In this document: positions 16,216-18,251 of the stretch, one piece after another
How positions within the stretch are numbered: the stretch's first letter is position 1
Layout: each line of letters starts with the position of its first letter
From: Phytomonas francai
Lineage: Eukaryota > Euglenozoa > Kinetoplastea > Trypanosomatida > Trypanosomatidae
Assembly: GCA_001766655.1 (NCBI GenBank)
Contig: MJCC01000020.1
Coordinates: 130,331 to 194,330, forward strand
Direction of reading: 5' to 3'
DNA: 64,000 bases
Notes under the pieces: generated by a model
The model's input: only the letters and a program-made list of their open reading frames with translations
The model's database searches: none
What the model was told of the DNA's origin: nothing
Program-made: the position numbers and the translations under genes

Positions 16216-18251
16216 TCATAAAGGACGATTGCGTGGCGCGCGCTGCAAGGTTTCCGCCATCACCTGCCAGCGCGCAAGCCACCCCATATATTCCTCCTGC
16301 TCGAGGAAAAACTGCATTTGGCAGACGTACTCCGCCAGTTCGTGGTTGATTTTGAGGTTCACCATCACGTAGGTGAGAAGGGCGTCCTGGAGCTCCTTGG
16401 AGAGCTCTGTAAAATAGGGGCCGCCGTAGCCGAGCGTGCGGGCCACCTCCCCGGTGTAATTCCAGCACCCCATCAGCAGCCTTTCCCCGGGCGACGCCAA
16501 GGAGGAAAGCAGCGAGGGCGAGGGGTCCGACGCCTTCCCTGTTCGCTCCCGCCGCGCCTCGAGCGCGTTGAATTGGCGGACGAGGTCGACGAAGAGCGGA
16601 TCCCCGCGGCCGAAGGCGGCGAACTCCTCGAGCGCGCGCGCAAGCCGGGCGGAGAGAAATTGCACGCCGCGCACGCGGAGTTCGCTGTTGACGACGGCGA
16701 GGCGGATCCACAGGCCGCCGCGGGCCTCCCACGCCCGCGAAAATCCGGCGGGGTCGCTGCCTGCGGGCCTCACGCGCGTCTTTCGCGCAAGCACATCGAA
16801 GAGCGCCCACTCGCAGACGCCGACCGCGGGGTCGAAGGCGGAGAGATCCTGCACGCGGAAGGGCGCAACGAGCGTCAGGTGCGTGTGTGGGCGGCCAACG
16901 CCGGCGTCGGCGTCGCCGGGGTGGGGCCTCCCCCCCCTCCACGCGGGGCTCGCGCGCCGCCGGAGCTCCTCAAGCCGCTCCTCGTGGAGGCTGCGGTACC
17001 GCGGCTCTCCCCTCGCGGCATCGCTGGCGGCGTCGAGGGCTGTGGACATGGTGAAAAAGCTCGTCCCGGGGTGGTGGTGGAGGGCCCACCCCGCAGGCGG
17101 CAGCGGCGGAATCGCCGCGCCGCCGTCGACGCTGTCCCGCGCTACCTCCGCGCGAATCTCCGCCGCGGCGACGCTTTTGAGGGCAGCCGCAGCGTCGAAA
17201 AACGGGCGCTGACGACGCAGCGCCTTTTGAGTCCCGTCGCTGATGCTGAGGGCGTGCGTGCTAGGAGGGCCATGCGTGTTATGAGGGCCCTGTGTGTTAT
17301 GAGGGCCCTGTGTGCTAGGAGGGCCATACGTGCTAGGAGGGCCGTGCGTGCTAGGAGGGCCCTGTGTGCTAGGAGGGCCCTGTGTGCTAGGAGGGCCCTG
17401 NNNNNNNNNNNNNNNNNNNNNNNNNNNNNNNNNNNNNNNNNNNNNNNNNNNNNNNNNNNNNNNNNNNNNNNNNNNNNNNNNNNNNNNNNNNNNNNNNNNN
17501 NNNNNNNNNNNNNNNNNNNNNNNNNNNNNNNNNNNNNNNNNNNNNNNNNNNNNNNNNNNNNNNNNNNNNNNNNNNNNNNNNNNNNNNNNNNNNNNNNNNN
17601 NNNNNNNNNNNNNNNNNNNNNNNNNNNNNNNNNNNNNNNNNNNNNNNNNNNNNNNNNNNNNNNNNNNNNNNNNNNNNNNNNNNNNNNNNNNNNNNNNNNN
17701 NNNNNNNNNNNNNNNNNNNNNNNNNNNNNNNNNNNNNNNNNNNNNNNNNNNNNNNNNNNNNNNNNNNNNNNNNNNNNNNNNNNNNNNNNNNNNNNNNNNN
17801 NNNNNNNNNNNNNNNNNNNNNNNNNNNNNNNNNNNNNNNNNNNNNNNNNNNNNNNNNNNNNNNNNNNNNNNNNNNNNNNNNNNNNNNNNNNNNNNNNNNN
17901 NNNNNNNNNNGTGCTAGGAGGGCCCTGTGTGCTAGGAGGGCCCTGTGTGCTAGGAGGGCCCTGCGACTCTCCGTCCGGTCGAATAGCACGTGCCGCGCTC
18001 ACGTGCGATGCATGGACGCCATTACCGACGAAATCATCGCTATCCGAGATGGGATGGGGTGGGTCGGTGATGCGCTCATTACCCAGCACGACCTCCTCGC
18101 CCTGGTTCTTATATTCAGACCCAAGACCTCGGAATTGCGTCTGAATACGAGGTAGAAAGGAATAAGAGAAATCACCCCCAAAGTAAAGGCCGTGCAAGGG
18201 ACAGGCTCGCTGCGCTTTATGCAAGGCGGGCGATATTCGCCGCCAAAGCAT
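16216..18251 (-). CDS. Mitochondrial p32/MAM33 (C1QBP) family protein with GPPSTQ repeat, interrupted by assembly gap
   Basis: I join two minus-strand blocks into one gene. The 5' block starts at ATG 18251 with a presequence-like MLWRRISPALHKAQRA, runs through about 90 residues, then enters GPPSTQ hexapeptide repeats. After the N run (17401-17910) the repeats resume in the 3' block, followed by HALSISDGTQKALRRQ, an Ala-rich helix, GWALHHHPGTSFFT, and the p32 core. The C-terminal YFTELSKELQDALL and EYMGWLARW segments are diagnostic of p32/MAM33, an acidic trimeric matrix protein linked in trypanosomatids to mitochondrial RNA metabolism and ribosomes. An alternative start at 17049 would cut off conserved core sequence. 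With the N run as written (510 bases) the two blocks are out of frame; a gap of 18n+1 bases restores the frame. The family call is firm, the single-gene model is inference. Confidence 0.8.
17255..17963 (-). repeat. 18-bp tandem repeat encoding GPPSTQ-type hexapeptides, with 510-base N run inside
   Basis: Unit gtgctaggagggccctgt, 18 bp, perfect or nearly so on both flanks of the gap. About three copies lie on the right (17911-17963) and about eight on the left (17255-17400). On the coding strand it reads GPPSTQ; copies at the left (C-terminal) edge have diverged to GPPSTH, GPPSTY and GPHNTQ. The period is a multiple of three, so copy-number change would not break the frame. The N run at 17401-17910 is presumably an unresolved stretch of the same array. 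Confidence 0.95.

What the first reader, a model, noticed from the sequence alone, without database searches (positions are those of the whole stretch)
16216..18251. A p32/MAM33-family gene spans the assembly gap and carries a GPPSTQ repeat
Seen: the p32-like core continues upstream of its first internal ATG (17049) in the same frame into GPPSTQ repeats without a stop; on the other side of the gap a presequence-like ATG frame (18251) also runs into GPPSTQ. Both flanks read GPPSTQ in the same register if the gap is 18n+1 bases. The N run of 510 is not of that form, so ORF finders split the gene. Known p32/MAM33 proteins do not, to my knowledge, have a proline-rich tandem hexapeptide between presequence and core.
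Basis: partly seen in the sequence, partly recalled or inferred. Interest (0 to 1): 0.8.

Follow-up and report, generated by a model that had tools for sequence, protein, structure and literature searches.

The report
Mitoribosome assembly gene with repeat linker
A gap in a trypanosomatid genome assembly appears to cut one gene for a known mitochondrial-ribosome assembly protein in two, because a short stretch repeats over and over in the protein's floppy front part; this is a species-level oddity of a familiar protein rather than a new system.

Summary
The only long gap of the window (17401-17910, 510 N) is flanked on both sides by the same 18-bp unit, read in the same register as (Q)GPPST. 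The block downstream of the gap is the counterpart of mt-SAF16, a subunit of the p32-like heterotrimer of the trypanosome mitoribosomal small-subunit assembly intermediate. Conserved core sequence lies upstream of its first in-frame ATG, so the start must lie in or beyond the gap; the upstream block supplies a presequence-like start. One gene is by far the likeliest reading (inferred, no reads). The last 53 nt before the gap equal the first 53 nt after it, so the array may have as few as 8 units (490 aa) rather than about 39. None of the 20 homologues listed has the repeat. The linker is predicted disordered and unconserved, and coding minisatellites occur elsewhere in the genome, so a tolerated minisatellite expansion explains it. 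The partner subunit mt-SAF19 also carries an unrelated coding minisatellite that runs into a gap. Low to modest interest.

The parts
18117..18251 (-). Putative start ATG (18251) and mitochondrial presequence-like segment, residues 1-45 (5 R, 1 K, 1 D, 0 E; net charge about +4; amphipathic stretch WRRISPALHKA)
   Evidence: presequence call is by composition only, without a predictor or a control
17964..18116 (-). Acidic linker (residues 46-96, net charge about -6)
   Evidence: no convincing similarity to the N-termini of 20 homologues
17911..17963 (-). Upstream part of the 18-bp coding minisatellite, 2.9 perfect units of QGPPST
17401..17910 (.). Assembly gap, 510 N; true length unknown; in frame if 18n+1, including -53 (flanks overlapping by 53 nt)
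17257..17400 (-). Downstream part of the minisatellite, 8 units: three QGPPST, then HGPPST, YGPPST, QGPHNT, QGPHNT, HGPPST
16216..17256 (-). mt-SAF16 core (N-terminal helix, beta strands, two C-terminal helices; PF02330 match at the C-terminal end), with stop codon at 16218-16216

Best explanation
One nuclear gene for the mt-SAF16 subunit of the p32-like heterotrimer (mt-SAF16/19/25) that sits on the maturing mitoribosomal small subunit of trypanosomatids. The protein is made with an N-terminal presequence, enters the mitochondrion, and its p32-type core joins the trimer. Between presequence and core lies a disordered linker in which an 18-bp unit has expanded by slippage or unequal exchange in this Phytomonas-like lineage. 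The frame survives because the unit is a multiple of three and the linker tolerates length change. The repeat broke the assembly, and an N run of unreliable length split the gene for ORF finders. Shown: sequence, subfamily, phase, absence of the repeat from the 20 homologues listed. Inferred: the join, import, trimer membership in this species, the cause of the gap, neutrality of the repeat.
For:: T. brucei mt-SAF16 (6sg9_FH) E 2e-64, next mt-SAF19 2.2e-9; in the reverse search T. brucei mt-SAF16 hits this locus best in the whole assembly (8.5e-45 and 2.8e-16; next locus 3.4e-8). (passages read): mt-SAF16, 19 and 25 form a heterotrimer homologous to p32/Mam33; the model has the p32 layout and Foldseek ranks mt-SAF16 first (9hny_FH 2.9e-20, 6sg9_FH 4.6e-19), then p32-like chains down to rank 9; conserved helix and PPLPPAGW motif (about residues 80-105 of the downstream block) lie upstream of ATG 17049 (residue 118); the frame of ATG 18251 scores best of six and is the only stop-free one; the known frames of the core and of the EF-hand neighbour also score best of their six; 53-nt terminal identity; pyrimidine runs of 8 or more upstream of 18251, none between 17400 and 17049. 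Length: with 8 units 96+394 = 490 aa, against 450-711 aa in the 20 homologues; no tandem repeat in 20 of 20 homologues; linker residues 6-53 have pLDDT below 50; 7 of 11 codon differences of the 8 units from unit 1 change the residue (possible single changes: 14 synonymous, 40 not), no sign of strong constraint.
Against: No read, transcript or peptide spans the gap. The upstream block has no convincing similarity to any homologue N-terminus (20 tested; best P0004 14 of 500 and P0001 23 of 500 shuffles as good, uncorrected). The margin of its codon score is small (0.068 against -0.049 and -0.131 bits per codon). The upstream block itself holds two pyrimidine runs (18171-18164 and 18162-18154), so a spliced-leader site there is not excluded. 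Agreement of the two reading frames has a chance of about one in three. The EM1 relative (P0002) is annotated with a start close to the core, so a shorter form is conceivable. The model superposes poorly as a whole on mt-SAF16 (rmsd 13.4 and 11.6, target TM 0.58 and 0.59).
Confidence: 0.88

Rival explanations
1. False gap (compatible with the one-gene reading): the two contigs overlap by exactly 53 nt and the true array has only 8 units, so there is no hidden expansion.
For:: exact 53-nt terminal identity; one of the 6 other gaps examined (L014, 245 N) also has 47-nt identical ends, the other five have 0-3. The right contig starts in the same phase as the array does (about 1 in 18 by chance, own reasoning). 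The resulting 490 aa falls within the homologue lengths.
Against: A perfect stretch of 53 nt with period 18 holds no repeated word longer than 35, which should not by itself stop an assembler; a longer perfect array is a more natural cause of a break (own reasoning). N lengths vary (30-510 in the 7 gaps), as in scaffolds with estimated gaps, and 510 would allow about 28 more units.
Confidence: 0.4
2. Two genes: an upstream presequence-like protein and a separate core gene, each with a piece of repeat, with an intergenic region in the gap.
For: Nothing sequenced links the blocks; 510 N could hold a short intergenic region (neighbouring spacings are 682 and 333 bp from the coordinates).
Against: The same private 18-bp unit in the same phase on both sides and nowhere else found in the assembly; the core has no in-frame ATG upstream of 17049 and no pyrimidine run of 8 or more between 17400 and 17049.
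Confidence: 0.05
3. The repeat is a selected, functional extension of the p32-like trimer, for example a proline-rich spacer or binding array, paralleled by the HNTTQSSPF array in the partner mt-SAF19.
For: Two subunits of the same trimer carry coding minisatellites in this genome, while Phytomonas Hart1 lacks one at the mt-SAF19 site (P0013) and none of the 20 mt-SAF16 homologues has one.
Against: Different units, different positions. Of 102 ORFs of 200 codons or more in a sample, 3 besides this locus have 4 or more tandem units, so at least one further case among the 4 other PF02330 genes is expected by chance at about 8-11% (own arithmetic with 2 or 3 of 101). Degenerate units change residues freely.
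Confidence: 0.07

Closest known systems
mt-SAF16 (P32), T. brucei mitoribosomal small-subunit assembly factor (PDB 6sg9/6sgb/9hny chain FH)
   Same: Aligned over residues 59-153 and 168-387 of the downstream block at E 2e-64, same fold type, best match in both directions
   Different: A (Q/H/Y)GPPST-type array in the N-terminal linker, absent from the T. brucei protein (P0021)
mt-SAF16-like proteins of Phytomonas Hart1 and EM1 (P0001, P0002)
   Same: 64.7% and 65.7% identical over the core, nearly as close as the two are to each other (67.6%)
   Different: No tandem repeat in either database sequence; Hart1's is marked partial and EM1's starts close to the core, so the linker there is not fully known
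p32/C1QBP, yeast Mam33, kinetoplastid p22
   Same: Pfam PF02330 and p32 fold
   Different: The solved chains of Mam33, p22 and the L. major p32 homologue are shorter (182-227 residues); human p32 is called an acidic protein (title of a reference seen) and a homotrimer, whereas this core has a computed pI of 9.07 and is of a heterotrimer subunit type
Coding minisatellites of trypanosomatid proteins in general
   Same: In-frame tandem units, also in this genome (L019 SQPPL, L016, mt-SAF19)
   Different: In the one listing that I saw on this (10 of 61 papers, titles and abstract starts) the repeat papers concern antigens or a cytoskeletal protein, not an assembly factor

Membership tests
mt-SAF16 orthologue group | Best match in both directions to T. 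brucei mt-SAF16 | tested here: met
   of the four other PF02330 loci found, L001, L002 and L005 are best matched by 1yqf (L. major p32 homologue) and L003 by mt-SAF19. No query matched a chain named mt-SAF25
mt-SAF16 orthologue group | Member of the mt-SAF16/19/25 heterotrimer on the small-subunit assembly intermediate | not testable with these tools
   known for T. brucei from passages of PMC11785013 and PMC7515705; no biochemical data for this species
p32/MAM33 superfamily (PF02330) | Pfam profile above the curated cut-off | tested here: met
   40 bits against 21.9; partial match, profile positions 148-207 of 212
p32/MAM33 superfamily (PF02330) | p32 fold: N-terminal helix, antiparallel sheet, two C-terminal helices | tested here: met
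   (mean pLDDT 61.5, pTM 0.54; helices 55-92, 335-348 and 353-387 mostly well predicted; target-normalised TM 0.77, rmsd 6.9 to 1yqf_A); the strands are of mixed confidence
p32 in the strict sense (acidic homotrimer) | Acidic protein | tested here: not met
   core pI 9.07; 12 homologues 6.05-9.45. Hence filed as an mt-SAF16-type member of the superfamily, not as p32 in the strict sense
p32 in the strict sense (acidic homotrimer) | Homotrimer | not testable with these tools
   the T. brucei counterpart is in a heterotrimer
Mitochondrial matrix protein with cleaved presequence | N-terminal basic amphipathic presequence | tested here: inconclusive
   composition and hydrophobic moment fit (no control), but no predictor and no homology of the segment
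Collagen-like repeat | Glycine at every third residue | tested here: not met
   glycine at every sixth residue; Pfam collagen 9.9 bits, E 0.83, below the cut-off of 27.2

The most novel reading that the evidence does not exclude
In this Phytomonas-like lineage at least two of the three subunits of the mitoribosomal p32-like trimer have independently gained length-variable tandem linkers, a change in the architecture of the assembly machinery that goes with a reduced mitochondrial translation programme (the maxicircles of Phytomonas HART1 and P. serpens lack COI-III and Cyb; PMC3916237 passages).
Probability: 0.06. Interest if true: 0.5.

Novelty: new member of a known kind. Interest (0 to 1): 0.2.

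Why it matters
It gives a precise name to a gene that ORF finders would split, and warns that N runs inside coding minisatellites break gene models; here two subunits of one complex are affected. If the linker arrays proved functional, they would be a lineage-specific remodelling of mitoribosome assembly in a group whose mitochondrial genome has lost cytochrome genes. As a tolerated repeat it is ordinary.

Tried and rejected
Collagen-like reading: rejected (glycine every sixth residue). Chance ORF: rejected, since the core is homologous over most of its length. Antisense ORF 16222-18144 (+, 640 codons including N): follows from a GC-rich gene and an array open in several frames; looked at only. 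Homology of the upstream block to homologue N-termini: tested against the 20 homologues with 500 shuffles each, no convincing match (12, 8; the lowest were 14 and 23 of 500, not corrected for 20 tests). The upstream block has no Pfam match up to E 1.

Literature: seven searches. Phytomonas with minisatellite returned one unrelated paper. None of the listings showed a paper on a tandem repeat in mt-SAF16; supplements were not searchable, most subscription papers are not held, and I did not see the 2019 Science paper on the assembly intermediate. Seen: passages of PMC11785013, PMC7515705 and PMC3916237; abstract and section 9 of PMC6868369 (on tandem repeats and assembly gaps; it says that the effect of tandem repeats on gaps is harder to quantify). 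All others only as search listings.

Counting caveats: the 102 ORFs are stop-to-stop, greedy, non-overlapping ORFs of 200 codons or more, not curated genes; for the window the script kept the overlapping plus-strand ORF, so the window's case was counted under that ORF. One of the four ORFs counted (L024) is a polyserine run. The all-N stretch L027 and the deliberately chosen L009 were left out of that sample. The gap count (7 gaps) includes L009. The repeat scan leaves out repeats of one or two residue types; one search shows homopolymer runs of 6-7 in P0003, P0007, P0010 and P0011 of 15 proteins. Protein database searches scored only the candidates sharing most words (7993, 7996), so absence of the repeat holds for the 20 homologues listed. 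The codon score rests on 35 training ORFs.

Full report
What is there. The window lies in a 17.4-Mb, 37-contig assembly. On the minus strand an ATG frame starts at 18251, runs 113 codons and ends in 2.9 perfect 18-bp units (QGPPST) at a 510-N gap (17910-17401). After the gap the same unit goes on in the same codon phase (8 units, three with the residues QGPPST, then five variants), followed without a stop by 346 residues that end at 16216. The unit was found only here in the assembly.

What the core is. By sequence its best solved relative is T. brucei mt-SAF16 (P32), PDB 6sg9 chain FH, E 2e-64; the next is mt-SAF19 at 2.2e-9, then the Leishmania p32 homologue 1yqf, yeast Mam33 and p22. The reverse search of T. 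brucei mt-SAF16 (P0021) against the whole assembly returns this locus first (8.5e-45 and 2.8e-16), the next locus at 3.4e-8. The PF02330 search finds five loci in the assembly; the other four best match 1yqf (L001, L002, L005) or mt-SAF19 (L003). A structure model of the downstream block (mean pLDDT 61.5, pTM 0.54) shows helix 55-92, strands, and C-terminal helices 335-348 and 353-387; Foldseek puts mt-SAF16 first (E 2.9e-20 and 4.6e-19, though with rmsd 13.4 and 11.6 over the whole chain), then p32-like chains to rank 9. mt-SAF16, mt-SAF19 and mt-SAF25 are described as a heterotrimer homologous to p32/Mam33 on the small-subunit assembly intermediate (passages of PMC11785013 and PMC7515705). 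The core is not acidic (pI 9.07), so it is filed under mt-SAF16, not p32 in the strict sense.

Which organism. Over the core, Phytomonas Hart1 and EM1 are 64.7% and 65.7% identical to it and 67.6% to each other; Leptomonas (P0004), Leishmania infantum (P0007) and Trypanosoma grayi (P0009) are 48.2, 45.8 and 42.6%. A third Phytomonas-like species is the natural inference.

One gene. Invariant positions of the alignment with 12 homologues (E81, A84, E85, R88, D89... G104, W105) lie upstream of the first in-frame ATG (17049, residue 118), so translation must start in or beyond the gap. There is no pyrimidine run of 8 or more between 17400 and 17049, but several upstream of 18251, and two inside the upstream block. 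The upstream block has a basic, amphipathic start followed by an acidic stretch, and its frame is the only one of six without a stop and the best scoring by codon use, by a small margin. With the repeats left out, the AE(V)..RD motif of the N-terminal helix would start near residue 132 (96+84-48); in the 19 of 20 homologues with that pattern it starts at 32-246, median 124 (P0023 lacked the exact pattern). Against: the upstream block has no convincing sequence match to any of the 20 homologues, and nothing sequenced spans the gap.

How long is the array. The last 53 nt before the gap equal the first 53 nt after it. Among the 6 other gaps seen, L014 has 47-nt identical ends and five have 0-3. 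So the contigs may overlap, with 8 units and a 490-aa protein; or the array may hold about 39 units (about 676 aa) if the N length is roughly right. Both are in frame (gap -53 or about 505).

Is the repeat unusual. None of the 20 homologues listed (12, 8 more) has a tandem repeat of this sort; a few have homopolymer runs, among them a polyglutamine run in the same linker of T. theileri (P0011). The database N-termini of Hart1 and EM1 are partial or short, so absence there is not certain. In this genome, 4 of 102 ORFs of 200 codons or more in 23 stretches (282,441 bases, the window included) have 4 or more tandem units, the window's included; one, in L019, is a proline-rich array of about 12 SQPPL-type units. 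Among the window's 8 units, 7 of 11 codon differences from the first unit change the residue. The linker is predicted disordered (residues 6-53 below pLDDT 50). All this fits a coding minisatellite tolerated in a linker.

A parallel. The mt-SAF19 counterpart (L003/L009) carries six HNTTQSSPF-type units (one ending in S) running into its own gap of 364 N, between the GRRRWEP motif and the rest of its core; Phytomonas Hart1 has none at that site (P0013). With 2-3% of ORFs carrying such arrays, at least one more case among the other four PF02330 genes has a chance of about 8-11% (own arithmetic), so this is suggestive only. The maxicircles of Phytomonas HART1 and P. serpens lack COI-III and Cyb (PMC3916237 passages); relaxed demand on mitochondrial translation is a possible background, untested.

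Verdict. Real, correctly read, one gene with high likelihood; a known assembly factor with a lineage-specific coding minisatellite that probably broke the assembly. Low to modest interest.

Noticed in passing
L009:5524-5887 and flanks (G000 C32, about 422.5 kb), minus strand: mt-SAF19 counterpart carries six in-frame HNTTQSSPF-type units (27 bp) that run into a 364-N gap inside the gene; the unit and the position differ from those in mt-SAF16, and Phytomonas Hart1 lacks it.
   Followed up: partly
L019:7076-7259, minus strand: Coding minisatellite of about 12 SQPPL-type units in a 1515-codon open frame that is cut by the end of the stretch.
   Followed up: no
L014:8663-8907: Gap of 245 N whose two ends are identical over 47 nt, possibly a false gap.
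   Followed up: partly
L016:8258-8314, minus strand: Tandem TPCG/TPCA-type tetrapeptide repeat (12 bp) in a 337-codon open frame.
   Followed up: no
L005:1372-2643 (-) and L002:1306-2067 (+): Two further PF02330 proteins (423 and 253 aa) whose best solved match is 1yqf and not a named mt-SAF chain; their roles are unclear.
   Followed up: partly
L027 (G000 C35:100001-110000): The whole 10-kb stretch reads N.
   Followed up: no
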